Shown here in pieces: positions 322-12,142 of a DNA stretch of 12,142 nucleotides; position 1 is the stretch's first letter, and each line of letters begins with the position of its first letter. The DNA comes from Treponema sp. (GTDB lineage Bacteria > Spirochaetota > Spirochaetia > Treponematales > Treponemataceae): NCBI GenBank assembly GCA_016290335.1, contig JAEETM010000096.1:1-12142 (forward strand), read 5' to 3'. A program made the translations under genes and the position numbers. Under the pieces are notes generated by a model. It was not told where the DNA came from. It made no database searches and saw only the letters and a list, made by a program, of their open reading frames with translations.

Positions 322-1755
322 ATGCAGGAATCCGAATTAAAAGAACTCATTACGAAAATTTTAGAAAGAAAGACAGAAACTTCAAAAATTGAATTCAAAA
401 GCGCAAAAGGTGGAACTCCAGAGAAACTGTATGACAGTCTTTCCAGTTTTTCTAATACAAGCGGTGGAATCATTATTTTTGGAATTGACGAAAAAGCAGG
501 TTACAAGGTATGTGGAGTTCAATATCCTGATGAACTGGAAAAAAAACTTGTAGACCAGTGCAAAGAAATGGAGCCGATTGTTCGTCCTTTGATTACATTC
601 TGTGAATACGAAGGAAAAACTATTGCATCTGCAGAGATAGCCGAGATGGATGCTGTAAGCAAGCCTTGTTATTATACTGGAAAAGGTAAGAGTAAAGGTT
701 CGTATATCAGAGTTGGTGAAGCTGATTTACCGATGACCGAATATGAAATCTATAGTTATGATGCTTTTAAGTTCAAAACAGAGGATGAATTAAGAACTAA
801 TAAAAGAATTGATGAATCTCTTTTAGATCAGATTCAAGTAGATGGTTTTATTGCAAAGGCTGTTTCTGTAAAACCAAACCTTGTAAACATGGATAAAAAG
901 ACTCTTATGACAATGAGTGGCCTTATAGACAAAAATGGCCTTCCAACTGTTTGTGGAATTATGCTGTTTGGAAAGTATCCGCAATATCTTTCTCCGAATC
1001 TTGATATTGTTGCCGTTGTATGTGCTACAACAAAATATGCAGAAGAATCTGAATCTGGTGAAAGATTTATTGTTAATAAACGCCTTGACGGAACTATTCC
1101 GCAAATGCTTGAAAGTGGCTTAGCTTTTGTTCAGCAAAATATTGCAAAATCAACAGTGATTGACGATACAGGACATAGAAATGATGTCAGCGAGTATCCG
1201 GTTAAAGCAATTCGTGAAATTATTTTGAATGCATTGATTCATCGGGATTATAGTATTCATACAGAAAATGATCCAATCAGAATCGAAATATATCCGGATA
1301 GAATCGAAATATCAAATCCTGGTGGACTATATGGTCGTTTATCGATTGACGATTTGGGAAAGATAAAGGCAGATGTCAGAAATCCTTTTATTGCTGCAGC
1401 TCTTGAATTATTGAATACTACTGAGAACCGCTATTCTGGAATTCCAACTATATATTCTGAAATGAAAAAAGCAGGATTGATGGAACCAAAGTTTGAAGAC
1501 TTGAGAGGCACTTTTAAAGTAACACTTTATAATTCTAAAAAGGTTCAGGCAGATTTATCAGAACAGATAATTGAGTTTTGCAGAAAGCCTCGAACAAAAG
1601 AAGCTCTTGCAAAGGAATTTGGATTTGATGAAAAGCATCCTGCTTATTTTATAAGTAACTACATTCTTCCTCTGATTGATGAGGGCAGACTTAAATATAC
1701 AATACCAGAAAAGCCTAAGAGTAAAAATCAGAAGATTGTAGTAGCGGACAATTAG
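322..1755 (+). CDS. AlbA_2 / HATPase_c_4 domain putative transcriptional regulator (COG2865-type)
   Basis: The 477-residue protein has the usual three-part layout of this family. An N-terminal AlbA_2 (Schlafen-like) domain covers about residues 15-135, with the EFK signature at 24-26, NTSGGIIIFGI at 45-55 and YIRVGE at 128-133. A GHKL/HATPase_c_4 domain covers about 290-395, with E299 and N303 in EIILNALIHRDY, a NPGG turn at 332-335 and RYSGIPTI at 370-377. A winged-helix-like tail covers about 411-462. The family is annotated as a DNA-binding or ATP-binding regulator and its precise role is not settled. The start is fixed by AGGAGG five bases before ATG. The gene is visibly more AT-rich than the flavodoxin genes and stands alone between two copies of a hydrolase sequence, which suggests independent acquisition. 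Autoregulation through the upstream TATTTTCGTAA copies is likely. The family call is firm; the function is not. Confidence 0.88.
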   Translation: MQESELKELITKILERKTETSKIEFKSAKGGTPEKLYDSLSSFSNTSGGIIIFGIDEKAGYKVCGVQYPDELEKKLVDQCKEMEPIVRPLITFCEYEGKTIASAEIAEMDAVSKPCYYTGKGKSKGSYIRVGEADLPMTEYEIYSYDAFKFKTEDELRTNKRIDESLLDQIQVDGFIAKAVSVKPNLVNMDKKTLMTMSGLIDKNGLPTVCGIMLFGKYPQYLSPNLDIVAVVCATTKYAEESESGERFIVNKRLDGTIPQMLESGLAFVQQNIAKSTVIDDTGHRNDVSEYPVKAIREIILNALIHRDYSIHTENDPIRIEIYPDRIEISNPGGLYGRLSIDDLGKIKADVRNPFIAAALELLNTTENRYSGIPTIYSEMKKAGLMEPKFEDLRGTFKVTLYNSKKVQADLSEQIIEFCRKPRTKEALAKEFGFDEKHPAYFISNYILPLIDEGRLKYTIPEKPKSKNQKIVVADN

Positions 1756-2756: not shown

Positions 2757-3608
2757 TTACGCCAGTAAGACTTCCTTCAGTTGCCTCATCATTTCAACCC
2801 TGCACACGGCATAAAACTTAACATTCACTTCCCCGTCTTCAATTGGAACGGCTACACGGCTTGTTTTTTTTAAGGCAGGAAGATGGTCTGCCTGTTCAGT
2901 GTAATCCGTTACGAATGCTGGAAGTGTTGAATGTGCAATTATATCCCTCAGGTCTGTAATGTCTTCCTGCTCAATAAACTTTGCATCGGGAATTGCATGC
3001 TTAACCGCATTGGACCAGAATCCAAGTTCTGAAAGCATTATGAAGGTTTCGCCTGCAAGTTCTTTGAGTTTTACAGATTTACGATTGGCCAGGCTGTGGC
3101 TTTTTGGAAGCAATACTTTGAGATGTTCTTCAAAAATCTCTGTTGCAAAAAAGCGTTCGTCCGAGCGGTTAATTGTTGTGATTATAATTTGAGCCTTGTC
3201 TTTTTCCAGCAGTGAAAAAAGCTCATCATTTTCGTTTTTCATCTGGCCGGTTATTTTAGTCTTTGGAAAAGTCTTGTTAAACTTTTGAGTCAAAACATAA
3301 AGCGGCATTGGCGCAATTGAAGCAATTTTAATTTCCCGGGTCTTGTTGTATAAATCAAGAACCTCATTTTCCATCTCGTTCTGAAGCGCAAGAATTCGGC
3401 GGGCATAGTCCACGGCAAGTCGGCCGGTCTGATTCAAAGAGATTGTATTTTTCGTCCTGTCAAAAAGTTGTACTCCAAGAATATCTTCCAGTTTTTGAAG
3501 AGAACGCGTAAGTGACGGCTGCGTTACATTCACAATTTCACTTGCGGCAACAAGCGTTCCACTATCGGCAAAGGCAACAAGATTTTGAAGGATATAAGTT
3601 TCTATCAT
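2757..3608 (-). CDS. LysR-family transcriptional regulator
   Basis: The 283-residue protein has the classic LysR plan. An N-terminal winged helix-turn-helix covers residues 1-60, with the recognition region VTQPSLTRSLQKLEDILG (28-45) and QLFDRTKN after it. A linker helix covers 65-90 and an effector-binding domain of two Rossmann-like lobes runs from about 91 to 280. It is divergently placed from the first flavodoxin gene, the usual LysR arrangement for controlling a neighbouring operon and itself. Its start codon lies only six bases from a strong TATAAT on the same strand, with no Shine-Dalgarno sequence, so the mRNA is probably leaderless. A T-N11-A sequence (TTTGATTGTTCAA) occurs at the promoters of both flavodoxin units and is the best candidate binding site. 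The effector is unknown, though the targets suggest electrophile or redox stress. Confidence 0.93.
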   Translation of the reverse strand: MIETYILQNLVAFADSGTLVAASEIVNVTQPSLTRSLQKLEDILGVQLFDRTKNTISLNQTGRLAVDYARRILALQNEMENEVLDLYNKTREIKIASIAPMPLYVLTQKFNKTFPKTKITGQMKNENDELFSLLEKDKAQIIITTINRSDERFFATEIFEEHLKVLLPKSHSLANRKSVKLKELAGETFIMLSELGFWSNAVKHAIPDAKFIEQEDITDLRDIIAHSTLPAFVTDYTEQADHLPALKKTSRVAVPIEDGEVNVKFYAVCRVEMMRQLKEVLLA

Positions 3609-3614
3609 ATTGAT

Positions 3615-3642
3615 ATTATAGCATGAGATTTGCTATGCGCAA
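3615..3642 (-). promoter_or_regulatory. LysR gene promoter (leaderless)
   Basis: On the minus strand TTGCGC (3642-3637) is followed after 16 bases by TATAAT (3620-3615), with TGC directly before it giving an extended -10. The ATG begins at 3608, six bases after the -10 box, so transcription should start at or next to the A of the start codon. Confidence 0.62.
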
Positions 3643-3785: not shown

Positions 3786-4277
3786 ATGGCAAAGACACTT
3801 ATTCTTTATTTTTCAGTATACGATTCAACACGGCACCTGGCAGAAGAAATCGCCCGTCAGACTGGCGGCGACCTTCTGGAAATTGAACCGGTAATTCCTT
3901 ACGACAAAAACCGCGACCACTATGACGCGCTGGCAGCCTACGCTAAAAAGGAACACGACGAAGACCAGCGTCCTGCAATCAAAAATGCAATTGACCTTTC
4001 TGACTACGACACTGTTTTTATCGGTTACCCGATGTGGTGGTACACCTTCCCTATGATTATCTACACGCTTTTTGACACTGTGAATTTTTCGGGAAAAACA
4101 GTCGTGCCTTTCAACACACATATGGGAAGCAGAGACGGCGGAACCTATAAAACCGTTCGTGAAAAGGCAAGGGGCGCAACCGTTCTTGAAGGTCTTCCTG
4201 TTTCTATGAAAGAAGCAGAAGGCGGTGCCGGCAAGGCTGTAGAAAACTGGCTTACAAAGCTTGGGCTTAAAAAATAG
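3786..4277 (+). CDS. Flavodoxin family protein (flavodoxin_4 type), cytoplasmic
   Basis: The 163-residue protein is a complete short flavodoxin domain without a signal peptide. The phosphate-binding loop region is YFSVYDSTRHLAEEI (8-22). The second loop is FIGYPMWWYTFPMIIYTLFD (78-97), whose WW pair is typical of this flavodoxin subfamily and should pack on the FMN ring. The third is VVPFNTHMGSRDGG (106-119), where relatives usually read CTHEGSG; this one has Asn in place of Cys. The family carries FMN and passes electrons to or from unknown partners. The gene is first in an operon divergent from the LysR gene, behind AAGGAG. The next gene is 45 bases downstream and encodes an exported paralogue. 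It is probably induced by the adjacent LysR protein. The electron partner is unknown. Confidence 0.9.
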   Translation: MAKTLILYFSVYDSTRHLAEEIARQTGGDLLEIEPVIPYDKNRDHYDALAAYAKKEHDEDQRPAIKNAIDLSDYDTVFIGYPMWWYTFPMIIYTLFDTVNFSGKTVVPFNTHMGSRDGGTYKTVREKARGATVLEGLPVSMKEAEGGAGKAVENWLTKLGLKK

Positions 4278-4279
4278 AG

Positions 4280-4300
4280 ATTCTGAATCAAGTTCAGAAT
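4280..4300. repeat. REP-like palindrome between two flavodoxin genes
   Basis: ATTCTGAA (4280-4287) and TTCAGAAT (4293-4300) form a perfect eight-pair stem around TCAAG, bounded by GAG on the left and GAC on the right. The layout GAGATTC...TCAAG...GAATGAC resembles dispersed palindromic intergenic repeats in many bacterial genomes. It has no T run, so it is more likely a repeat or mRNA-processing hairpin than a terminator. Confidence 0.65.
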
Positions 4301-4322
4301 GACAATTTACGGAGGAAAACTT

Positions 4323-4895
4323 ATGAAAATCAAATCAATTATCTTAACTGCACTTATTGCAATTGCCGCAACAAGCGGATTATTTGCTCAGAACAAAGCT
4401 GATGCAAAATCGAACAACAAGACCCTGGTAGTTTATTTTTCGTGGTCAGGAAATCTTGACAAAATGGCACACTGGATTGCCGATGAAACAGGCGGAGACT
4501 TGCGGCGTGTAACTGCAAAAGAAACTTATCCTGAAAATTATAACAAAACAGCAGACCGAGCTAAAAATGAAAAGGACAAAGGAATCCGCCCTGCAATCAA
4601 CGTGAACATTACAAAAGAAGAAATGGCTGGCTATGATACAATTTATTTTGGCTTCCCTGTATGGTGGTACGATCTTCCTATGCCGATGTGGACTTTCCTC
4701 GAAAGCTACGATTTCAAAGGAAAAACAATCATTCCTTTCTTCTCTCACGAAGGAAGCTCAAACGGAGCAAATGCTCTTCCTACTGTTGAAAAGCTTGCAA
4801 AGGGTGCGAGCGTAAAATCGAAGAATGCACTTTCCATCCGTGGTGGCAATGTTGCAAAATCAGAAAAGGAAGTTCGTGCATGGGTAAAGAAATAA
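4323..4895 (+). CDS. Exported flavodoxin family protein
   Basis: The start at 4323 follows GGAGG (4311-4315) at seven bases and gives a 190-residue protein. An in-frame ATG at 4299 would begin inside the REP-like palindrome with no ribosome site and is rejected. Residues 1-22 form a Sec-type signal peptide: MKIK, a hydrophobic core, then SGLFA before QNK. No twin-arginine motif and no lipobox are visible. The mature part is a flavodoxin_4 domain: VVYFSWSGNLDKMAHWI (36-52), YFGFPVWWYDLPMPMWTFLE (108-127) and IIPFFSHEGSSNGANAL (136-152). It shares GIRPAIN with its paralogues. Flavodoxins normally act in the cytoplasm, so this one implies FMN-dependent electron transfer outside it, or a flavin-free role. 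Its 3' end overlaps the next gene by 16 bases, so the two are probably translationally coupled. Confidence 0.9.
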   Translation: MKIKSIILTALIAIAATSGLFAQNKADAKSNNKTLVVYFSWSGNLDKMAHWIADETGGDLRRVTAKETYPENYNKTADRAKNEKDKGIRPAINVNITKEEMAGYDTIYFGFPVWWYDLPMPMWTFLESYDFKGKTIIPFFSHEGSSNGANALPTVEKLAKGASVKSKNALSIRGGNVAKSEKEVRAWVKK

Positions 4896-5683
4896 AAAGA
4901 TTTCTTGTGCTCTGCGCTATAGTGAATATGATATCCGTCAATCTTTTTGCAGAGTCTGTTACTTTTGGAAAAGACAATATCCGTGGCTTTACCTTTGACA
5001 ATGTATTTCATTCGGATTCAGAAGGCGACATACACTTTGGACTTTATGTTCCAAAAGACTACGACGGAAAAGAAGCTTATGCGCTTTTTATAACACTTCC
5101 CGGATACGAAGGACTTCATTTTCAGGGCGTGGGTAGAAACATTAAAGCAGAGGACTACGGAATTGAAGCACAAAAATATAACGCTAAGATGATTGTCGTG
5201 GCTCCTCAGCTTTCGGATTGGAGGATGACAAGCGCAAAACAGACTGTAGCCCTTACAAAATATTTTCTTGAGCATTACAACATCGACCAGACAAAAGTCT
5301 ACTTAAACGGATATTCTGGCGGAGGAGAAACAGGTTCTCTTGTTATGCAGATTGCACCAGAGCTATATACAGCTTTTATACATTGCTCTTCGCAGTGGGA
5401 TGGAGAGTTAGATCCTCTTGTTCGCGCAAGAACGCCAGTCTACCTTGTCACCGGCAGAAACGACACTTATTACGGAAGCTCTTCGGTTCAAAAAACTTAC
5501 CGGACGCTTGTGGAATTGTATAAAAAAGAAGGCCTGTCTGAAGGAGAAATTGGAAGACTCGTAACGATGGACTTAAAAGATCAAAGTTATTTTGACACAC
5601 GTGGAATTAAAGACCAGCACGGAGGCGGCGGCCTTTTTGCTCATGATTCAGTGATTATGCTCTGGCTGTTTGGAGAGCATTAA
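4880..5683 (+). CDS. Exported alpha/beta hydrolase (esterase/peptidase-like)
   Basis: The 267-residue protein starts within the 3' end of the exported flavodoxin gene, with AAGGA (4866-4870) nine bases before the ATG. Residues 1-25 are a signal peptide ending NLFA before ES. The catalytic domain begins with a beta-strand stretch HFGLYVPKDY (52-61) and has the oxyanion-type motif ITLPGYEG (71-78). The nucleophile elbow is NGYSGGGETG (143-152), with S146 the likely nucleophile. A late acid is probably D195 in TGRND, and the catalytic histidine H255 in FAHDS or H247 in QHGGG. The architecture resembles secreted phospholipase/carboxylesterase and polysaccharide-esterase relatives. The substrate is unknown. 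It lies between a flavodoxin and an esterase-SUMF1 lipoprotein in one operon, suggesting shared control rather than a proven shared pathway. Confidence 0.84.
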   Translation: MGKEIKRFLVLCAIVNMISVNLFAESVTFGKDNIRGFTFDNVFHSDSEGDIHFGLYVPKDYDGKEAYALFITLPGYEGLHFQGVGRNIKAEDYGIEAQKYNAKMIVVAPQLSDWRMTSAKQTVALTKYFLEHYNIDQTKVYLNGYSGGGETGSLVMQIAPELYTAFIHCSSQWDGELDPLVRARTPVYLVTGRNDTYYGSSSVQKTYRTLVELYKKEGLSEGEIGRLVTMDLKDQSYFDTRGIKDQHGGGGLFAHDSVIMLWLFGEH

Positions 5684-5708
5684 TAGCAGGAAAAAGTTGG
5701 AGGTACAG

Positions 5709-7391
5709 ATGATTACAAAACAAAAATCACTATTCGGACTGTTATTCGTCATATTAATCTGCGGCTGCAGTAAAGAAGATCTGAACGCTCAAAGTTCAAA
5801 GCGAAACGGACAGGAGGCAACCATGAATAATCAAACAGGATTTACTCAGCCAGTTCCCTCGGAATACACACGGCAAGCCTCACAAAAAGGCAGTGTAACG
5901 CGCCTGGATTACACTTCAAAAGATTATGCCGGAAATGGAAAAGCAATCACCAAGACGGCCTATGTATACACACCATACGGCTACAATGAAAAAGGAAGCG
6001 AGCGTTACGACATTCTCTACCTCATGCATGGCTGGGGCGGTCATGCCGGTGAATATTTTGAGATGGCGGACATCAAAAATGTCTTTGATAACCTGATTGA
6101 AAAAGGCAAGATCAAACCTCTTATAGTTGTTTCTGCCACTTTCTATAACGCAAATAGCGGCTCAGACTTCGGATCTTCGGTGGCAGAGCTCCGCTCTTTT
6201 CACAATGATTTTGAAAAGCACCTTATGCCGGCGGTAGAAGGAAAATATCGCACTTATGCAGTATCAACTTCAGATGCCGACTTAAAGGCTTCCCGCAGTC
6301 ATCGTGCGTTCGGCGGATTTTCCCTTGGCTCTGTTACCACCTGGCTTGAGTTCTGTCATGACTCCGACTATATTTCAAGTTTTATTCCAATGAGCGGTTC
6401 GTCCTGGTACTATGGCGGATTCGGCGACTTTCAGATTAAGAAAAACGTGGATTTTATCGAAAACCTTGTGCGGGATAACAAACTGAACGAGCGGGGATAC
6501 TTTATCTACCACGCTGTTGGCACGAATGACGCAGTAAAAGAACAGAGCTATATGATGGCAGAAGAAATGCTTTCTCGAAAAACTTTTTCGTCTGAGCATT
6601 ATGTTTTTTATCAGAAACAGGATGGTATTCATGACCATTTTGCCGTGCGGGAGTTTTTGTACAATGCTCTGCCGGTGATTTTTCCAAAAAAGCAAACTAG
6701 TGAAAGCAACAACCTCGTTCTTGTCAAAGGCGGAACTTTTCTTTCCACATCGGACACGAAAAATCCTGATGACTACAGGCAGCACCGCGAGACTGTCGAG
6801 GATTTTTACATCTCCAAATATGAAGTTACGGTCGCCCTTTACAAAAGCGTTACTGGCAAAAATCCCACTTCCGCCCGCGACGGAACGGACGAGATGAATC
6901 GCCCTGTTGAAAATATCTCTGGTTATGACTGCATTGATTTTCTGAACGTATTGAGCTGCCTTGAAGGGCTTGAAGAATGTTACAACTTTGCAAATGGAAA
7001 ATGGACTTGCGATTTTTCAAAGAACGGCTACAGGCTTCCCACGCTCCCCGAATGGGAATATGCAGCCCGCGGCGGTTCTTTGTCTAAAGGCTACAAATAT
7101 TCGGGCAGCAACAGACTTAGCGAAGTCGGCTGGTATGACGAAAACTCTGGCGGACATGCCCATCAGGTTGGACTTTTGAAGCCGAACGAACTTGGACTTT
7201 ACGACATGAGCGGAAATGTGGGCGAACGCTGCTGGAATCCGTCATACAAGGGCGAAAATCCCGCACATGTTGGTCGCGGTGGCTGCTGGATTTACTACGA
7301 AGGCTACTGCACCCCAGACTACCGCTTCGTCACGACGGAAAACTACACGGGAGAGGGTCTGGGGCTTCGCCTGGTGCGGACAAAGATGTAG
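5709..7391 (+). CDS. Lipoprotein fusing an esterase-D-like domain to a SUMF1/formylglycine-enzyme-like domain
   Basis: I chose the ATG at 5709, with GGAGG (5699-5703) five bases upstream, giving 560 residues; an upstream in-frame ATG at 5670 lies inside the previous gene. The N-terminus is a lipoprotein signal with lipobox ICGC and C20 as lipid site. Residues ~60-325 are a putative esterase (PF00756-like): LYLMHGWGGH (103-112), nucleophile motif FGGFSLGS (201-208) with S205, acid D274 in GTND, and histidine H308 or H310 in GIHDHF. Residues ~335-560 are a SUMF1/FGE-sulfatase-like fold: VKGGTF, YRLPTLPEWEYAARGG (441-456), GLYDMSGNVGE (496-506) and GLRLVR at the end. In true formylglycine-generating enzymes two cysteines follow RGGS; here alignment gives Y529 and C534, so one is missing. 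I infer a surface esterase with a non-FGE accessory module. Transcription is probably shared with the upstream flavodoxins. Confidence 0.87.
   Translation: MITKQKSLFGLLFVILICGCSKEDLNAQSSKRNGQEATMNNQTGFTQPVPSEYTRQASQKGSVTRLDYTSKDYAGNGKAITKTAYVYTPYGYNEKGSERYDILYLMHGWGGHAGEYFEMADIKNVFDNLIEKGKIKPLIVVSATFYNANSGSDFGSSVAELRSFHNDFEKHLMPAVEGKYRTYAVSTSDADLKASRSHRAFGGFSLGSVTTWLEFCHDSDYISSFIPMSGSSWYYGGFGDFQIKKNVDFIENLVRDNKLNERGYFIYHAVGTNDAVKEQSYMMAEEMLSRKTFSSEHYVFYQKQDGIHDHFAVREFLYNALPVIFPKKQTSESNNLVLVKGGTFLSTSDTKNPDDYRQHRETVEDFYISKYEVTVALYKSVTGKNPTSARDGTDEMNRPVENISGYDCIDFLNVLSCLEGLEECYNFANGKWTCDFSKNGYRLPTLPEWEYAARGGSLSKGYKYSGSNRLSEVGWYDENSGGHAHQVGLLKPNELGLYDMSGNVGERCWNPSYKGENPAHVGRGGCWIYYEGYCTPDYRFVTTENYTGEGLGLRLVRTKM
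5812..5825 (+). promoter_or_regulatory. Strong internal ribosome binding site and in-frame ATG
   Basis: AGGAGG at 5812-5817 stands five bases before an in-frame ATG at 5823, codon 39 of the lipoprotein gene. Starting here would give a 522-residue protein beginning MNNQTGF, without the signal sequence and lipid cysteine but with both domains complete. It may be an alternative start producing a cytoplasmic form, or chance. Confidence 0.4.
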
Positions 7392-7403
7392 AATCCCATA
7401 TAA

Positions 7404-7585
7404 TCGACGATACCATTCATTATGGTGATGGTTGATGAAATTCAACTTTTGCAACGTTTAGAGGGCGAGGTGACGAAATTAAGGTGTTTCCCCTTCAGTT
7501 TTGCAGAATATATGTCCGCAAAGAAAATCACTTCTGATTATGATGTAAAAGCCGTTAATGACTATATGCAATTTGGAGGGCTTCC
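7404..7585 (+). pseudogene. Remnant of an AAA_14/DUF4143-type ATPase gene
   Basis: In the frame of the ATG at 7422 the translation begins MVMVDEIQLLQ, a Walker-B-like segment with the DEIQ typical of AAA_14 ATPases. It then goes almost directly to LEGEVTKLRCFPFSFAEYM and NDYMQFGGLPQ, matching the conserved (S)GR..L..PFSF.EY and YL..GGLP segments of that family. In intact proteins these pieces are separated by a longer sensor region, and an N-terminal Walker A part and a C-terminal domain flank them. Both flanks and much of the interior are missing here, so this is a deletion remnant. After GGLP the frame runs out of family similarity, at the join with the esterase remnant. Such ATPases are common, often multicopy genes in gut bacteria. 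Confidence 0.68.
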
Positions 7586-7756
7586 GCAAACTACCGCACC
7601 ATGCAAAACCGAATCAACAGAATCAAGGCAAAGGGCATCGACGCGCAGATAGAAGTATTCCGCGGTTTAGGACATGGCTTTGGACTTGGACAAGGAACCG
7701 TTGCTGAAGGCTGGATAGACAATGCGGTAAAGTTTTGGGAAAAGCAGAATGAGTAG
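7586..7756 (+). pseudogene. C-terminal remnant of an alpha/beta hydrolase (acetyl esterase-like)
   Basis: A frame different from the ATPase remnant reads from about 7586 to the TAG at 7754-7756. Its ATG at 7601 would give 51 residues, ending IEVFRGLGHGFGLGQG and WIDNAVKFWEKQNE. The GHGFGLG segment followed by W...AVKFWEKQ is characteristic of the last strand, catalytic histidine loop and final helix of BD-FAE or Abhydrolase_3 esterases. Everything upstream, including the nucleophile elbow, is absent. The reading frame is intact to its natural stop, so the deletion is probably fairly recent. It suggests that an additional esterase gene once stood here, next to the existing esterase cluster. 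Confidence 0.66.
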
Positions 7757-7781
7757 CTGAAATGTGTGAGCCCTGAGTATA

Positions 7782-7844
7782 CGTCTGACGAATAGCACCT
7801 TGCGAAAGTTTGATTGTTCAAGACAGGTATATCTCTGCTATCAT
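7782..7844 (+). promoter_or_regulatory. Second copy of the flavodoxin promoter/operator block
   Basis: CGT (7782), ACGAATA (7788-7794), AAAGTTTGATTGTTCAA (7805-7821) and a -10 box TATCAT (7839-7844) repeat the order and spacing of the block at 3701-3763: 6, 10 and 17 bases. The 17-base central piece is identical in both. It contains the T-N11-A, TTGA/TCAA inverted repeat expected of a LysR site. The ribosome site GGAGGA at 7855-7860 precedes the ATG at 7867. Confidence 0.7.
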
Positions 7845-7866
7845 TTAATCATACGGAGGACACAAG

Positions 7867-8427
7867 ATGAAATTAAAATCAATTCTTATGGCAACAGCAA
7901 TAATGATGCTTACATCATGCAGCCTGATTGCACAAAACTCAAAAAACTCACAAAACTCAAAAACTCTGGTTATGTATTTTAGCTGGGGTGGCACAACGGA
8001 AAAAATGGCAAAGATGATTTCCTCATCTAACGGCGGGGAGCTTTTTAGGATTGAACCGACAAAGGCTTATCCAACAAGCTACACTCCTTGTACTGAAGTT
8101 GTAAAAGAAGAACTGGATAATGGTATATTCCGCCAGGTAAAAAAGGCTCCGGATTTTTCTAAGTACGATACAATTTTTGTAGGAGTTCCTGTATGGTGGC
8201 ATACAGCACCAACCCTTATGACTCATTTCCTTGAAGAAAACAAGGAGGCGCTTAAGGGCAAGACAATCATTCCATTCTGCACGTATCAGGCTACTTACCG
8301 CGCGGAAACGCTTCAGGCAATTGTGGATGCAACTCCAACTGCCAGTCATAAGGAAGGCTATGGCACGACAAATCCAAATCAGAATGATGTAGATGCATGG
8401 CTTAAGAAAATTGGGTTAGGAAAATAA
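7867..8427 (+). CDS. Lipoprotein flavodoxin family protein
   Basis: The 186-residue protein begins with MKLK and a hydrophobic core ending LTSC, a good lipobox with C18 as lipid site; an alternative Sec cut after LIA would give QNSKN. A low-complexity linker QNSKNSQNSK follows. The flavodoxin_4 domain starts at VMYFSWGGTTEKMAKMI (35-51), continues with IFVGVPVWWHTAPTLMTHFLE (103-123) and ends with IIPFCTYQATYRAETL (134-149). That last loop differs from the CTHEGSG of relatives, and the ERPAI-type segment is also changed (GIFRQVKKAPDF), so this is the most divergent of the four flavodoxins here. It is the first gene of a two-gene unit with an aldo/keto reductase 20 bases downstream, under a promoter matching that of the first flavodoxin operon. 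It is predicted to sit on the outer face of a membrane; FMN binding there is unproven. Confidence 0.9.
   Translation: MKLKSILMATAIMMLTSCSLIAQNSKNSQNSKTLVMYFSWGGTTEKMAKMISSSNGGELFRIEPTKAYPTSYTPCTEVVKEELDNGIFRQVKKAPDFSKYDTIFVGVPVWWHTAPTLMTHFLEENKEALKGKTIIPFCTYQATYRAETLQAIVDATPTASHKEGYGTTNPNQNDVDAWLKKIGLGK
7931..7966 (+). repeat. 18-base near-perfect tandem repeat in the flavodoxin linker
   Basis: CACAAAACTC followed by an A run and ACT occurs at 7931-7948 and again at 7949-7965, differing by one base in the A-run length. It encodes the QNSKNSQNSK linker between lipid anchor and domain. Slippage here could change linker length or frame. Confidence 0.55.
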
Positions 8428-8447
8428 ATTTTTAGGGAGATATTATT

Positions 8448-9335
8448 ATGGACTATGTAACACTATCAAACGGCGTAAAAATGCCACAGCTGGGCTATGG
8501 CGTGTATCAGGTGACAAAGGAAGAGGCTGAACGCTGTGTTTCGGATGCACTGGAAGTGGGCTACCGCTCGATTGATACGGCACAGAGTTATTTCAACGAA
8601 GAAGAAGTGGGGAATGCGATTGCAAAATCAGGCATTGCGCGCGGCGATATTTTCCTTACCACAAAAGTCTGGATTGAGCATTACGGCTACGAGGCGTGCA
8701 AGAAGTCGGTGGAAGAATCGCTTAAGAAACTCAAGACTGATTACATTGATCTCATGCTGCTTCATCAGCCTTTTGGTGATGCTTACGGTGCATGGCGCGC
8801 TCTTGAAGAATTTTATGAAAAAGGAATTTTAAAGGCAATCGGAATCTCCAACTTTTATGCCGACCGCATGGTGGAGTTCGCTTCATTCAACAGAATCAAG
8901 CCTATGGTGAATCAGGTGGAATGTCATCCTTTGAATCAGCAGATAGAGGCAAAAAAATGGAATGACAAGTACGGTATTCAGCTTGAAGCCTGGGCCCCTT
9001 TTGGCGAGGGACGTGGTGGTCTTTTTGAAAATCCTGTGTTAAAAGAAATTGCTGCCGCACATGGAAAAACAACAGCTCAGGTTATGCTCCGCTGGCACCT
9101 GCAGAGAGGAATTGTGGTTATTCCAAAATCAACCCACAAGGAACGCATGGCAGAAAATCTGAATGTCTTTGATTTTACCCTCACTGCCGAAGAGATGGCA
9201 AAAATTACTGCTCTCGATACTGCAACAAGTTCTTTCTTCAGTCATCAGGATCCTGCAATGGTGGAATGGTTCGTAAAAATGGTTGAAGAGCGGAAGAAGC
9301 AGCAGGATTCCAGTAAAGAGAAGAAGGCCTGGTAA
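8448..9335 (+). CDS. Aldo/keto reductase, cytoplasmic
   Basis: The 295-residue protein is a standard (beta/alpha)8 aldo/keto reductase of the 2,5-diketo-gluconate reductase-like group, using NADPH to reduce carbonyls. The catalytic tetrad is complete: D43 in SIDTAQSY, Y48, K73 in TTKVW and H106 in LLHQP. GISNF (132-136), NQVECHP (155-161), APFGEG and the cofactor segment VVIPKSTHKERMAENLNVFDF near the C-terminus are all present. The tail from about 255 is extended and charged (VEERKKQQDSSKEKK). There is no signal peptide. AGGGAG (8434-8439) lies eight bases before the ATG. It is co-transcribed with the lipoprotein flavodoxin, so a shared inducer is likely. A strong hairpin follows the stop codon. 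The substrate is unknown. Confidence 0.94.
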   Translation: MDYVTLSNGVKMPQLGYGVYQVTKEEAERCVSDALEVGYRSIDTAQSYFNEEEVGNAIAKSGIARGDIFLTTKVWIEHYGYEACKKSVEESLKKLKTDYIDLMLLHQPFGDAYGAWRALEEFYEKGILKAIGISNFYADRMVEFASFNRIKPMVNQVECHPLNQQIEAKKWNDKYGIQLEAWAPFGEGRGGLFENPVLKEIAAAHGKTTAQVMLRWHLQRGIVVIPKSTHKERMAENLNVFDFTLTAEEMAKITALDTATSSFFSHQDPAMVEWFVKMVEERKKQQDSSKEKKAW

Positions 9336-9343
9336 TATTTCAC

Positions 9344-9383
9344 AATTCTGGATTTTGTAAACATGCTTACAAAGTCTAGAGTT
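9344..9383. terminator. Bidirectional hairpin between convergent operons
   Basis: AATTCTGGATTTTGTAA (9344-9360) pairs over all 17 positions, including three G-T pairs, with TTACAAAGTCTAGAGTT (9367-9383) around the loop ACATGC. It lies between the convergent aldo/keto reductase and SnoaL-like genes. T-rich sequence (GGTTTTATT) follows about nine bases to the right on the plus strand. Neither side has an ideal immediate T run, so it may also act as an mRNA-stabilising hairpin. Confidence 0.62.
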
Positions 9384-9395
9384 CTGTAAAAGGTT

Positions 9396-9839
9396 TTATT
9401 CTACCCGAATCCAGATACCATCCCTTTTTTTATAAGTGTAATCACCACTCATAGTCCAGCTGCCGCTTATTCCATAAACTTTTGCCGTGAGCGTGTGGGT
9501 GACTTTCATGTGAGCCGTGTCGCCATTCACACTGATTGAAAAATCCTTTGTATCCACTTTGAAGTAGTTTAGAGTTCCATCCATAATCTCGCCAATGAAC
9601 TCTTCCCGAGTCTGTTTTTTACCGCTCATGTGGGTAAAGAGCAGTTTTTCGTCAAAGTAGCGTTCCATTGCGACCCTGTCTTTTTTTATCATAGCATTGT
9701 TGATTGCATCGTAGGCAGAGTACACTTCTCTTTCTTCTTTGGTCATTGGCACTTTTCCATTTCTTTGTTTTGATTCCTGGCCCGTGCAGGCAAAAAGAGC
9801 CAGCACGAGCACTGCAAAAATTGTTGCAAGTTTTTTCAT
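9396..9839 (-). CDS. SnoaL/DUF4440-like (NTF2-fold) lipoprotein
   Basis: The start at 9839 gives 147 residues and is one base after the TGA of the upstream reductase gene, so translation is probably coupled; a longer in-frame start at 9893 would lie inside that gene and lack a signal. The N-terminus MKKLATIFAVLVLALFAC is a lipoprotein signal with C18 as the probable lipid site, though F at -2 makes the lipobox imperfect. The rest fits a SnoaL/DUF4440 NTF2-like fold: a first helix VYSAYDAINNAMIKKD, FDEKLLFTHMSGKKQTREEFI, and a closing sheet FSISVNGDTAHMKVTHT to WTMSGDYTYKKRDGIWIRVE. Such proteins often bind small ligands; some are enzymes and many have no known role. It is the last gene of the minus-strand redox operon, so a role in handling the substrate or product of that pathway is plausible. 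Confidence 0.82.
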   Translation of the reverse strand: MKKLATIFAVLVLALFACTGQESKQRNGKVPMTKEEREVYSAYDAINNAMIKKDRVAMERYFDEKLLFTHMSGKKQTREEFIGEIMDGTLNYFKVDTKDFSISVNGDTAHMKVTHTLTAKVYGISGSWTMSGDYTYKKRDGIWIRVE

Positions 9840-9840
9840 A

Positions 9841-10683
9841 TCAGGCCTTTTCAAAGTCTGGCTTCCATGCAGCAAACTGAACCAACTGCTCATCAGTCCG
9901 GTGGTAATAGCGTTCGCCTTTGTCGAGTTTTGCGATTTCTGCCATTTCTTCGCCGGTCAGTTCAAAGTCCATGATATTCAGATTGTCTTTGATGTGGTCA
10001 ACGTTCTTGCTTCCGGGAATTACGACGAATCCCATCTGAACATGCCAGCGTAAAATCACCTGGGCGGGTGTTTTGCCGTATTTTTTGCCCAGTTCAGCAA
10101 AGACTGGTTCCTGAATCAAAGACTTATCGCCATGTCCAAGAGGGTACCAGCTCATAAGACTGATGTCATACTTGTCCAGAGTTACGCGCAAATCCTTCTG
10201 CGTAAAATATGGATGGGCTTCCACCTGAATGAATTGAGGGGCAGTTTCCCATTTAGTCTCAAGTTCCTTAATATATTTTCCTTCAAAATTAGAAATGCCG
10301 ATAGAACGTGCTTTCCCATCGCGGAGTGCCTTTTCAAGCTGACGGTAGCCTGCAAGCCAGTTTCCAGCCGGCTGATGGATGTAAAGCAGGTCAACGTAAT
10401 CTACTCCAAGACGCTCAAGAGTTTCGTCAACAGCATTTGGGTTTTCGTATTCTGACGGCCAGAGTTTTGTAGAAAGAAAAACTTCGTTTCTTGTCACGCC
10501 GCTTTCCTTGATTCCCCGTCCAACAGCGCGCTCATTCACATAAGCATTTGCCGTGTCGATAAGACGGTAGCCCATCTTAAGAGCCTCGCGGGTGCTCTTC
10601 TGTGCATCTGCTGGTGAGAGCATAAAAGTTCCAAGTCCTATTACAGGGCAGTCGATTCCGTTGTTTAATTTGATTGTCTGCAT
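9841..10683 (-). CDS. Aldo/keto reductase, cytoplasmic
   Basis: The start at 10683 follows AAGGAG at seven bases and gives 280 residues; an upstream in-frame ATG at 10713 would overlap the preceding gene and adds ten residues without homology. The (beta/alpha)8 reductase has its full tetrad: D43 in LIDTANAY, Y48, K73 in STKLW and H103 in YIHQP. Other family signatures are GISNF, QVEAHPYF, SWYPLGHGD and the NADPH-binding VVIPGSKNVDHIKDNLNIMDF. It has no signal peptide. It is the third gene of the minus-strand operon, 16 bases after an exported paralogue, and its stop codon is one base from the next start. This pairs a cytoplasmic with an exported reductase in one transcript. The substrate is unknown. 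Confidence 0.93.
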   Translation of the reverse strand: MQTIKLNNGIDCPVIGLGTFMLSPADAQKSTREALKMGYRLIDTANAYVNERAVGRGIKESGVTRNEVFLSTKLWPSEYENPNAVDETLERLGVDYVDLLYIHQPAGNWLAGYRQLEKALRDGKARSIGISNFEGKYIKELETKWETAPQFIQVEAHPYFTQKDLRVTLDKYDISLMSWYPLGHGDKSLIQEPVFAELGKKYGKTPAQVILRWHVQMGFVVIPGSKNVDHIKDNLNIMDFELTGEEMAEIAKLDKGERYYHRTDEQLVQFAAWKPDFEKA

Positions 10684-10699
10684 GTTGAGTCTCCTTGTT

Positions 10700-11608
10700 T
10701 TAATAATTCGCATTTCTTCTGTCTTTGTTTATGGCAGCCATTTGCTTCATCTCATCATCGGTGAGGGAAAAATCCCAGACGCTTGCATCTTCTATGATGT
10801 GCTTTTCGTTGGAGCTGCCGGGGATTGCAATATTGCCTGCCTGCAGGTGCCAGCGGATAATGATTTGGGCGGAAGACTTGCCGTGGGCCTTTGCGATTGC
10901 GCTGATTGTAGGGTCGTTGAAAAGTTCCTGAGTGTAGCCGCGGCCGCCGAGTGGGAACCAGCTTTCCATAACTGTGCCGTACTTTGCAATGTGGGCTTTC
11001 ATTTTTTCGCTCTGGTGGTATGGATGGGTTTCGTTCTGCAAAAGGGCTGGCTTAATGCTTGTTGCTTTTACTAAGCGGTCAAAATCATCCGGCTCGTAGT
11101 AGTTTGAAAGTCCGATTGAACGAAGCTTTCCGGCTTTTACTGCGCGCTCCATTGCCTTGTAGGCGTCAACATCATTGCGTGGCTGAGAGTGGTGAAGAAT
11201 CATCAGGTCAATGTAGTCCAGCCCCAGGCGTTTGAGGGAAGCGTCCACTGCTGCATCTCCGTTTGAAAAATCACTTGTCCACATTTTTGTGGTAACAAAG
11301 ATTTCTTCGCGCTTTACAATTCCGTCTTTGATTGCCCGACGGATTCCACGACCAACCCCTTCTTCGTTTCCGTAAATGCGGGCAGTGTCAATCAGTCTCA
11401 TTCCGGCTTTGAGTGCCCAGTAAACAGAGTTTTCTGCCTGGTCTGACGAAAGATAAAATGTTCCGATTCCAAGAATTGGCATTTCATGTCCTGAGTTCAG
11501 CTTTACAGTACCTTTCTTAAGATCAAAGGCCGGGGCTTGTGCAAAAATTGAAGCTGTCATCATAGAAAAAACTCCTGCAATTAAAAATGTTTTCAGACCT
11601 CTTTTCAT
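10700..11608 (-). CDS. Exported aldo/keto reductase
   Basis: The 302-residue protein begins with a Sec-type signal peptide: MKRGLK, a hydrophobic stretch, then TASIFA before QAPAF. There is no twin-arginine motif and no lipobox. The mature part is a complete aldo/keto reductase with D74 in LIDTARIY, Y79, K108 in TTKMW and H139 in ILHHSQP. GLSNYY, NETHPYH, SWFPLGGRG and the cofactor segment IAIPGSSNEKHIIEDASVWDF are also present. NADPH is not normally found outside the cytoplasm, so an exported copy with an intact active site is odd. It could work with another cofactor, be inefficiently exported, or have a non-redox role. The ribosome site AGGAG overlaps the stop codon of the upstream flavodoxin gene, showing tight operon structure. 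Confidence 0.9.
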   Translation of the reverse strand: MKRGLKTFLIAGVFSMMTASIFAQAPAFDLKKGTVKLNSGHEMPILGIGTFYLSSDQAENSVYWALKAGMRLIDTARIYGNEEGVGRGIRRAIKDGIVKREEIFVTTKMWTSDFSNGDAAVDASLKRLGLDYIDLMILHHSQPRNDVDAYKAMERAVKAGKLRSIGLSNYYEPDDFDRLVKATSIKPALLQNETHPYHQSEKMKAHIAKYGTVMESWFPLGGRGYTQELFNDPTISAIAKAHGKSSAQIIIRWHLQAGNIAIPGSSNEKHIIEDASVWDFSLTDDEMKQMAAINKDRRNANY

Positions 11609-11617
11609 GCAAGTCTC

Positions 11618-12139
11618 CTACTTTCCCAATTTAGCAAGCCAGTCCTGTACGGCTTTTTTAGCCGCACTTCTGTTAGTCTGTGCTACCTTTCCCTGAACGG
11701 CAAGGCCTTTTTCTACGGTTGCGCCTTTGCAGGTTGAACGGATGCGGCTTTCTGTTCCGCTAAGTCCGCTTCCTTCGTGGGTGCAGAACGGGATGATTGT
11801 TTTTCCCTTCCAGTCGTGGGCTTCTAAGAATGTGTAAAGGGGCATTGGCATGTCTCCCCACCAGTTTGGATAGCCGATGTAGATTGTGTCGTATGCGGTA
11901 ATGTCGATATCAGCTTTGAGGGCTGGGCGGGCTTTTTTGTTCTGCTCATCTTTTGCAATCTGAGTCAGGCGGCTGTAGCTGTCGGTTGGATAAGGCTTTT
12001 GAGTTTCAAGTTCAAAAAGCTCTGAGCCTGTTTCTTCTGCAATGAACTTTGCGATGATTGAAGTATTTCCTTCTTTTATGTTTCCAACGTTATATTGTTC
12101 GCCTGCGAGCGAAAAATAAACTACCAGCGATTTTCCCAT
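11618..12139 (-). CDS. Flavodoxin family protein, cytoplasmic
   Basis: The 173-residue flavodoxin_4 protein is the first visible gene of the minus-strand operon. The phosphate-loop region is longer than in the other three: VVYFSLAGEQYNVGNIKEGNTSIIAKFI (6-33), with an inserted segment before the NTSIIA helix. TIYIGYPNWWGDMPMPLYTFLE and IIPFCTHEGSGLSGTESRI follow, the last being the canonical form of the motif. No signal peptide precedes the domain if translation begins at 12139. Only three bases upstream are visible, so the ribosome site and any earlier start cannot be judged. The insert resembles the arrangement in flavodoxins of gut bacteria encoded beside aldo/keto reductases. Its promoter, which might carry the operator seen at 3701 and 7782, lies outside the window. 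Confidence 0.88.
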   Translation of the reverse strand: MGKSLVVYFSLAGEQYNVGNIKEGNTSIIAKFIAEETGSELFELETQKPYPTDSYSRLTQIAKDEQNKKARPALKADIDITAYDTIYIGYPNWWGDMPMPLYTFLEAHDWKGKTIIPFCTHEGSGLSGTESRIRSTCKGATVEKGLAVQGKVAQTNRSAAKKAVQDWLAKLGK

Positions 12140-12142
12140 TTT

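What the first reader, a model, noticed from the sequence alone, without database searches (positions are those of the whole stretch)
3786..12139. LysR-linked redox island with exported and cytoplasmic flavodoxin and aldo/keto reductase pairs
Within 8.4 kb there are four flavodoxins and three aldo/keto reductases. Two flavodoxins and one reductase have export signals, next to two exported esterase-type proteins and a SnoaL-like lipoprotein. Each family is known, but parallel cytoplasmic and extracytoplasmic sets under one apparent regulon look like an undescribed system, perhaps for releasing and reducing toxic or electron-accepting aldehydes, quinones or plant phenolics. The function is inference.
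Basis: partly seen in the sequence, partly recalled or inferred. Interest (0 to 1): 0.75.

Follow-up and report, generated by a model that had tools for sequence, protein, structure and literature searches.

The report
Cell-surface flavodoxin and carbonyl reductase system
Rumen and gut bacteria appear to send a carbonyl-reducing enzyme and its flavin electron carrier, normally cytoplasmic proteins, to the outside of the cell as one working unit, in some species as one fused protein.

Summary
The genes are real and in the stated places, in Treponema-like DNA. There are two convergent operons: LysR | Fld1-FldS2-EstA-Est/FGE-FldL3-AKR1 (+) and Fld4-AKRS3-AKR2-DUF4440 (-). One correction: Fld4 is cut by the window edge, and its 95-98% identical orthologues carry a signal sequence, so three of four flavodoxins are probably exported. 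The strongest result is comparative. Relatives of the exported reductase AKRS3 are exported by different devices (Sec, lipobox, one Tat-like lipobox, SLH, Big_2, dockerin). In 10 of 80 loci they are fused to a flavodoxin, and four database proteins fuse flavodoxin, DUF4440 and reductase, the exported trio of the window's minus operon. The exported reductases keep the catalytic tetrad (74 of 74) and the nicotinamide-site residues checked; Gly and His replace the NADPH-phosphate Lys (73) and Arg (74), so NADH use is inferred. A nicotinamide enzyme thus seems to work outside the cytoplasm. DUF4405 membrane cytochromes, present in 21 of 80 loci, may carry the electrons. A single LysR regulon is not supported: the two operons were found apart in the relatives fetched. 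Substrate, NAD source and direction of electron flow are unknown.

The parts
2757..3608 (-). LysR-family regulator, divergent from Fld1
   Evidence: Pfam HTH_1 and LysR_substrate; a LysR gene also flanks plus-type operons in L119, L120, L121 and L077
3786..4277 (+). Fld1, cytoplasmic Flavodoxin_4
   Evidence: Pfam E 4.6e-30; no signal by rule
4323..4895 (+). FldS2, exported Flavodoxin_4
   Evidence: Pfam E 2.2e-26; GGAGG at 4311-4315 before the ATG; signal; orthologue in L117
4880..5683 (+). EstA, exported esterase-like hydrolase (signal called by eye)
   Evidence: weak Pfam Peptidase_S9 and NCBIfam PHB-type matches; relative in L120; signal not caught by my rule
5709..7391 (+). Est/FGE lipoprotein: esterase domain plus FGE-sulfatase domain
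   Evidence: Pfam Esterase and FGE-sulfatase; signal; esterase part alone in L117, FGE part alone in L119
7586..7753 (+). C-terminal remnant of a third esterase, longer in L117, L118 and L120
   Evidence: tblastn 62-86% identity over 53-56 residues; Pfam BD-FAE for the L117 and L120 proteins
7867..8427 (+). FldL3, lipoprotein Flavodoxin_4
   Evidence: Pfam E 1.4e-22; lipobox LTSC, signal; aligned DNA in L118 and L119
8448..9335 (+). AKR1, cytoplasmic aldo/keto reductase with Lys and Arg at the NADPH-phosphate positions
   Evidence: Pfam E 4.2e-55; site residues
9396..9839 (-). DUF4440 (SnoaL-like) lipoprotein
   Evidence: Pfam E 5.9e-16; signal; the same family is fused to flavodoxin and AKR in P0186, P0189, P0190 and P0194
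9841..10683 (-). AKR2, cytoplasmic aldo/keto reductase with Gly/His at those positions
   Evidence: Pfam E 7e-50; site residues
10700..11608 (-). AKRS3, exported aldo/keto reductase with intact catalytic tetrad and Gly/His cofactor site
   Evidence: Pfam E 1.7e-46
11618..12142 (-). Fld4, Flavodoxin_4 cut at its 5' end by the window edge; orthologues have a signal

Best explanation
The window carries two operons of a wider extracytoplasmic redox system of gut and rumen bacteria. Its core is an exported flavodoxin, an exported NAD-type aldo/keto reductase and often an exported DUF4440 protein, working as one unit on the cell surface or in the periplasm. SHOWN by sequence: export signals and surface domains of several kinds, fusion into one polypeptide, and an intact reductase active site. 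INFERRED: electrons from cytoplasmic flavoproteins or quinol cross the membrane through a DUF4405 b-type cytochrome (encoded near such genes in some relatives, not in this window), reduce the FMN of the exported flavodoxin, and are used by the reductase, through a bound or scavenged NAD(H), on carbonyl compounds outside the cell. In the plus-type islands exported esterases would release such compounds. The flow could also run the other way, oxidising alcohols outside and sending electrons in.
For: Export: of 120 rows in my broad AKRS3-like class 81 have a signal. The 39 without are 32 rows at 44-50% identity to AKRS3, cytoplasmic by their N-termini, and 7 rows at 71-79% whose starts are cut, broken or unclear. 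Of 100 other AKRs 1 scored, through a spurious upstream start. Fusions: 10 of 80 loci. Of the 120 listed hits of a search made with a fusion, hence biased to fusions, 82 are Fld-AKR, 4 Fld-DUF4440-AKR, 34 AKR alone; 102 of 120 have a signal. SLH, Big_2 or dockerin domains occur in fusions. Catalytic D, Y, K, H in 74 of 74 exported AKRs; Gly for K262 in 73, His for R268 in 74. A K-to-G and an R-to-H change at the same spacing are listed for 1A80 to 1M9H (table passage of PMC4580623), 1m9h being a 2,5-diketogluconate reductase. Tree: 4 label changes against a shuffled mean of 14.1. DUF4405: in 21 of 80 loci; 48 of 75 hits lie within 10 kb of a listed Flavodoxin_4 hit in 195 genomes of T. zioleckii's family. 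DUF4405 cytochromes and extracytosolic Flavodoxin_4 are described in PMC11334425 (abstract and passages).
Against: I searched for no NAD(H) source outside the cell and know of none in the window. No DUF4405 gene lies in the window; 59 of 80 loci show none. 19 of 80 loci show no flavodoxin, among them 5 of the 27 loci of at least 20 kb. In T. zioleckii's family only 20 of 45 AKR matches lie within 10 kb of a listed Flavodoxin_4 hit and 13 of 45 near DUF4405 (truncated list, short contigs, AKR2-like matches included). 60 of 63 exported flavodoxins lack the covalent-flavin motif in the loop, and the window's four lack it altogether, so FMN retention outside is unexplained. The signal tests are my own heuristics, not SignalP. 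The fold model places the fused domains with pTM only 0.50, so no docking is shown. In T. zioleckii both AKRS3 and the AKR2-like gene carry an in-frame stop. Occurrence is patchy: 38 of 195 and 10 of 200 genomes, at different cut-offs.
Confidence: 0.55

Rival explanations
1. The exported reductase works with a tightly bound NAD(P) as an internal hydride carrier, oxidising one outside compound and reducing another (as periplasmic glucose-fructose oxidoreductase does; recalled). The flavodoxin is an electron outlet or inlet rather than an essential donor.
For: Intact tetrad and nicotinamide-site residues in all 74 exported AKRs examined; no NAD supply outside is known to me; 19 of 80 loci show no flavodoxin.
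Against: Fusion to flavodoxin in 10 of 80 loci and in 86 of 120 listed hits of a fusion-biased search. Glucose-fructose oxidoreductase is exported folded by Tat (recalled), whereas of 65 non-fused AKRs with a signal only 4 had a twin-arginine pattern.
Confidence: 0.2
2. An ordinary electrophile or xenobiotic stress island (AKR, flavodoxin, SDR, MATE, TetR/LysR) in which a few members happened to gain export signals, with no joint extracytoplasmic pathway.
For: Many neighbours are of detoxification type: MATE in 34, SDR in 24 and TetR in 35 of 80 loci; cytoplasmic AKRs and flavodoxins accompany them.
Against: Exported AKRs form nearly one clade with several anchoring devices; in the 10 fusion loci the flavodoxin is fused to the AKRS3-type reductase each time, and triple fusions with DUF4440 exist.
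Confidence: 0.15
3. Extracellular modification of a specific lipid, steroid or terpenoid: AKR as hydroxysteroid-type dehydrogenase, DUF4440 as a ketosteroid-isomerase-like partner, flavodoxin or OYE for C=C reduction.
For: DUF4440 fused to Fld-AKR; SnoaL_4 in 18, OYE in 7 and SDR in 24 of 80 loci. The parallel to bile-acid genes is recalled.
Against: No substrate evidence; the best solved relatives are diketogluconate reductase and other small-carbonyl AKRs, although hydroxysteroid dehydrogenases also appear lower in that list.
Confidence: 0.1

Closest known systems
Extracytosolic flavinylated Flavodoxin_4 with DUF4405 cytochromes (Huang et al. 2024, PMC11334425; abstract and found passages seen)
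   Same: Flavodoxin_4 domains outside the cytosol, predominantly in Firmicutes, with DUF4405 cytochromes encoded nearby.
   Different: Here 60 of 63 exported flavodoxins lack the covalent-FMN motif in that loop, and the partner is an exported AKR with or without DUF4440; 'aldo' has no hit in that paper's main text.
Aldo/keto reductases of the 2,5-diketogluconate reductase type (DkgA, YvgN, PDB 1vp5)
   Same: Aldo_ket_red domain, catalytic tetrad, nicotinamide-site residues.
   Different: Exported and in many relatives surface-anchored; the 2'-phosphate lysine and arginine are replaced by Gly and His.
MsrPQ, periplasmic methionine sulfoxide reductase fed by a membrane cytochrome (recalled; DUF4405 is likened to MsrQ in PMC11334425, passage)
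   Same: Works-like model: a membrane b-cytochrome feeds an extracytoplasmic reductase.
   Different: Different carrier and catalytic proteins: flavodoxin and AKR instead of a molybdenum enzyme.
Feruloyl/acetyl xylan esterases (BD-FAE; XynZ type)
   Same: Exported proteins with these domains lie in plus-type operons; the XynZ-type match of Est/FGE is far below that model's cut-off.
   Different: Here they stand with exported flavodoxins; substrate untested.

Membership tests
Aldo/keto reductase superfamily (AKRS3) | Aldo_ket_red domain | tested here: met
   Pfam PF00248 E 1.7e-46
Aldo/keto reductase superfamily (AKRS3) | Catalytic tetrad Asp, Tyr, Lys, His | tested here: met
   present in AKRS3 and in 74 of 74 exported relatives
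Aldo/keto reductase superfamily (AKRS3) | Lys and Arg that bind the 2'-phosphate of NADPH | tested here: not met
   Gly and His instead. Not required for the superfamily; read as NADH preference
Aldo/keto reductase superfamily (AKRS3) | Carbonyl reduction with NAD(P)H | not testable with these tools
   needs purified protein
ApbE-flavinylated extracytosolic Flavodoxin_4 | Flavodoxin_4 domain with an export signal | tested here: met
   FldS2 and FldL3 directly; Fld4 through its orthologues
ApbE-flavinylated extracytosolic Flavodoxin_4 | Flavinylation motif in the beta1-alpha1 insertion | tested here: not met
   no motif in any of the window's four flavodoxins; in the loop of 3 of 63 exported relatives (L057, L077, L119). 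A looser search of whole proteins found 5 of 50
ApbE-flavinylated extracytosolic Flavodoxin_4 | apbE gene nearby | tested here: inconclusive
   no ApbE among the window proteins scanned; relatives were not scanned for it
DUF4405-linked electron transfer | DUF4405 cytochrome next to the flavodoxin | tested here: not met
   none in the window; present in 21 of 80 related loci and beside AKR with a signal and exported Fld in L123, L127, L129 and L130
LysR-controlled single regulon | Both operons next to LysR, or sharing its site, across relatives | tested here: not met
   operons found apart in the fetched stretches; candidate box not conserved; but a LysR fragment lies near the minus-type genes in L135

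The most novel reading that the evidence does not exclude
A nicotinamide-dependent oxidoreductase that works permanently outside the cytoplasm. A Sec-exported AKR captures NAD(H) as a quasi-prosthetic group and is recharged directly by the FMN of a fused or partner flavodoxin, itself fed through a DUF4405 cytochrome. This would be a flavodoxin-driven surface carbonyl reductase, and in dockerin or SLH forms part of the fibre-degrading or S-layer machinery.
Probability: 0.3. Interest if true: 0.85.

Novelty: new variant of a known kind. Interest (0 to 1): 0.68.

Why it matters
Nicotinamide enzymes are thought to need the cytoplasm's NAD pool. A clade with an intact nicotinamide site, export signals or surface domains, and fusions to flavodoxin suggests that some gut and rumen bacteria do carbonyl chemistry outside the cell. 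That would bear on how dietary, plant and host carbonyls, and perhaps quinones or steroids, are transformed in the gut. It also adds a likely partner enzyme to the known extracytosolic flavodoxin/DUF4405 electron route. The fusion proteins make the idea directly testable with single purified polypeptides.

Tried and rejected
One LysR regulon: rejected for lack of support, since the operons lie apart in the fetched relatives and the box is not conserved. Covalent flavinylation of the window's flavodoxins: rejected on the motif. A dead or moonlighting exported AKR: rejected because tetrad and nicotinamide residues are invariant in 74 of 74. The SnoaL count (37 loci) is not used, because my string match also counted SnoaL_4; recounted as 30 loci, 22 with a signal. 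The fold model did not settle domain placement. Literature: searches (0 papers; 1; 1; 15 of 2,396 listed; 10 of 219; 15 of 17; 20 of 243) listed no paper whose title or abstract start describes an exported AKR-flavodoxin system; most hits were not listed or opened, and the library lacks most subscription journals. PMC5898192 (passages) mentions an archaeal extracellular flavodoxin-like domain and assigns DUF4405 to the cytochrome b family; no keto reductase. PMC12934955 (passages) concerns another gene neighbourhood.

Rows dropped: one search used AKR domains covering at least 85% of the profile, 74 labelled exported by the first rule and 146 not (some of these were exported but missed). The tree used 52 of 224 rows, after removing near-copies and AKRs under 36% identity to all three window AKRs. 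Searches skipped flavodoxin domains with a missing start. The Flavodoxin_4 list was truncated by the tool, so the distances are lower bounds.
Full report
What is there. The 12,142-base window carries, after a SLFN/AlbA-type gene (322-1755) and an alpha/beta hydrolase (1922-2746), two convergent operons (Pfam; NCBIfam). Plus strand, divergent from LysR (2757-3608): Fld1, exported FldS2, EstA (signal called by eye), the Est/FGE lipoprotein, a decayed stretch, lipoprotein FldL3, cytoplasmic AKR1. Minus strand: Fld4 (cut by the window end), exported AKRS3, cytoplasmic AKR2, DUF4440 lipoprotein. No tRNA was found. The nearest relatives of AKRS3 among genome contigs are two Spirochaetes MAGs (L001, L002, 96%) and T. 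zioleckii kT3 (L003, 95%); that these are rumen organisms is recalled. No whole genome is held for the window.

Correction to the observation. Fld4's frame is open at the window edge. In L001, L002 and L003 its orthologue (98, 97, 95% identical) begins with a signal sequence directly upstream of the shared part. So FldS2, FldL3 and Fld4 are probably all exported, and only Fld1 is plainly cytoplasmic.

Export is not an accident of one genome. One scan of genome contigs with AKRS3 gave 102 relatives, of which 80 loci were kept. By my count of their titles, 63 of 80 bear Bacillota-type names, 4 Spirochaetes, 4 Chloroflexi/Anaerolineae, 3 others and 6 no group; many are near-copies of each other. 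Their N-termini show Sec-type signals, lipoboxes, one twin-arginine lipobox (L073) and surface domains. Pfam finds SLH-AKR (L004, L058), SLH-Flavodoxin_4-AKR (L007, L009), Big_2-Flavodoxin_4-AKR (L037, L049), Big_2-AKR (L057; L024 as a fragment) and RicinB-AKR (L052). With a simple signal rule, 81 of 120 rows of my broad AKRS3-like class have a signal. Of the 39 without, 32 are proteins at 44-50% identity with cytoplasmic-type starts, and 7 at 71-79% have cut, broken or unclear starts. Of 100 other AKRs, 1 scored, through a spurious upstream start. A tree of 52 rows needs 4 label changes against a shuffled mean of 14.1; two of the three 'cytoplasmic' rows inside the exported group have a signal that my first rule missed, and the third (L042) has an unclear start. 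In 200 genomes of the family of L033 (Lachnospiraceae by title) 10 have a match at E<=1e-85; the 13 matches lie in open frames of 344-657 residues, longer than a bare AKR, though these frames need not begin at a start codon. Occurrence is patchy.

One unit. A search with a Fld-AKR fusion (L010) gave 5,237 proteins at E<=1e-60 among 7,996 scored candidates; 120 are listed. By my HMMs 82 of these 120 are Fld-AKR, 4 are Fld-DUF4440-AKR and 34 are AKR alone; 102 of 120 have a signal by my rule. The query being a fusion, this list is biased to fusions. Pfam confirms the triple fusion in P0186, P0189, P0190 and P0194, and dockerin-Fld-AKR in P0170 and P0192. The triple fusion has the same three exported families as the window's minus operon. 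Exported FGE-Flavodoxin_4 fusions also occur (L123, L127), which links the FGE domain of the window's Est/FGE protein to exported flavodoxin. In the 80 loci, 61 have a flavodoxin, 44 one with a signal, 10 a Fld-AKR fusion, 4 a Fld-DUF4440 fusion, 30 a DUF4440-type gene (22 with a signal) and 21 a DUF4405 gene; 55 have a TetR or LysR gene.

The reductase is intact. Against 1vp5, the catalytic Asp, Tyr, Lys and His are kept in 74 of 74 exported AKRs, as are the residues aligned with Ser159, Asn160 and Gln183 (human aldose reductase numbers, recalled). The lysine and arginine of the NADPH 2'-phosphate site are Gly in 73 and His in 74. Changes K232G and R238H are listed for 1A80 to 1M9H (table passage of PMC4580623), and 1m9h is a 2,5-diketogluconate reductase. 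That these are the same two positions I infer from their spacing of six; I did not align 1M9H. That they favour NADH I infer from reference titles seen in PMC3565945 and from recall. The window's AKR1 keeps K and R; AKR2 has G and H. Among the 146 AKRs not labelled exported, K and G (43, 103) and R, H and Q (61, 58, 27) are mixed.

Flavodoxin and electron route. Huang et al. 2024 (PMC11334425; abstract and passages) showed covalently flavinylated Flavodoxin_4 proteins and heme-binding DUF4405 membrane proteins, and wrote that extracytosolic flavodoxins show signs of flavinylation. Here only 3 of 63 exported Flavodoxin_4 domains have the motif in that loop (L057, L077, L119), and 0 of 40 without a signal; a looser search of whole proteins found 5 of 50 exported. 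The window's four have none. In 195 genomes of T. zioleckii's family, 48 of 75 DUF4405 hits over cut-off lie within 10 kb of a listed Flavodoxin_4 hit (lower bound), 20 of 45 AKR matches lie that near to a listed flavodoxin and 13 of 45 to DUF4405. Of 38 genomes with an AKRS3 match at 1e-60, 27 have DUF4405, against 41 of the other 157 (Fisher p = 6.6e-7, not corrected for kinship; the AKR set includes AKR2-like matches). L123, L127, L129 and L130 carry an AKR with a signal, an exported flavodoxin and DUF4405 together. Pfam identifies exported DUF362 proteins in L123 and L129 and an exported cyclophilin-like protein in L130.

Two operons, not one regulon. Plus-type operons recur with LysR in L117, L119, L120, L121 and, in a Clostridia MAG, L077 (LysR, AKR, Fld, AKR, lipoprotein Fld, Est/FGE). 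In L117 a C5-methylase and an NgoBV-type endonuclease gene sit between LysR and Fld1. Minus-type operons lie apart from them in L125, L130 (beside TetR, without AKRS3) and L135 (AKR and Fld only, no signal found by my rule). Against a clean separation, a 104-base piece of the LysR 3' end lies about 5 kb away in L135. A palindrome ATAGCA-N7-TGCTAT at 3618-3636 is exact in the window, but only its right half is kept in L117 and L119.

Mechanism and limits. Best reading: a surface or periplasmic flavodoxin-AKR unit for carbonyl chemistry, fed (or drained) through a membrane cytochrome. Export signals, fusion and active-site integrity are shown by sequence. Electron route, NAD source, direction and substrate are inferred or unknown. 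The fold model of P0186 is confident for most residues (mean pLDDT 86.5) but not for domain placement (pTM 0.50).

Novelty. Searches of the held library listed no paper on an exported AKR-flavodoxin system, with most hits not listed; 'aldo' has no hit in the main texts of PMC11334425 and PMC8238504. This is not proof of absence from print.

Noticed in passing
window 10684-10697; L001, L002, L003/L125: In L001 and T. zioleckii (L003/L125) similar genes, restriction-modification type by Pfam in L001, lie at the AKRS3/AKR2 junction that is seamless in the window; in L002 the match also ends after AKRS3, and type I restriction genes follow further on.
   Followed up: partly
L117:10593-12621: A C5-cytosine methylase and NgoBV-type endonuclease pair lies between LysR and Fld1 of a closely related plus operon.
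   Followed up: partly
window 5709-7391: Esterase and FGE-sulfatase domains are one lipoprotein here; in L117 the matching gene covers the esterase part alone and in L119 the FGE part alone, which suggests a fusion.
   Followed up: partly
window 4956-5781 against L117: The window segments before 4956 and after 5781 are adjacent in L117, which thus lacks most of EstA and joins its start to the esterase.
   Followed up: no
L086 and L125: T. zioleckii kT3 has an in-frame stop in AKRS3 and in the AKR2-like gene: the operon seems to be decaying in that isolate.
   Followed up: no
L126:11309-13108, L132:8288-10048: A 1-deoxyxylulose-5-phosphate synthase gene lies inside Treponema-family islands with exported AKR and flavodoxin genes.
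   Followed up: no
L135:8431-8533: A 104-base piece 96% identical to the 3' end of the window's LysR gene, about 5 kb from Fld and AKR genes like the window's minus operon.
   Followed up: no
window 322-1755: SLFN/AlbA_2 plus HATPase_c_4 protein with a Fic-like C-terminal domain upstream of the operons.
   Followed up: no
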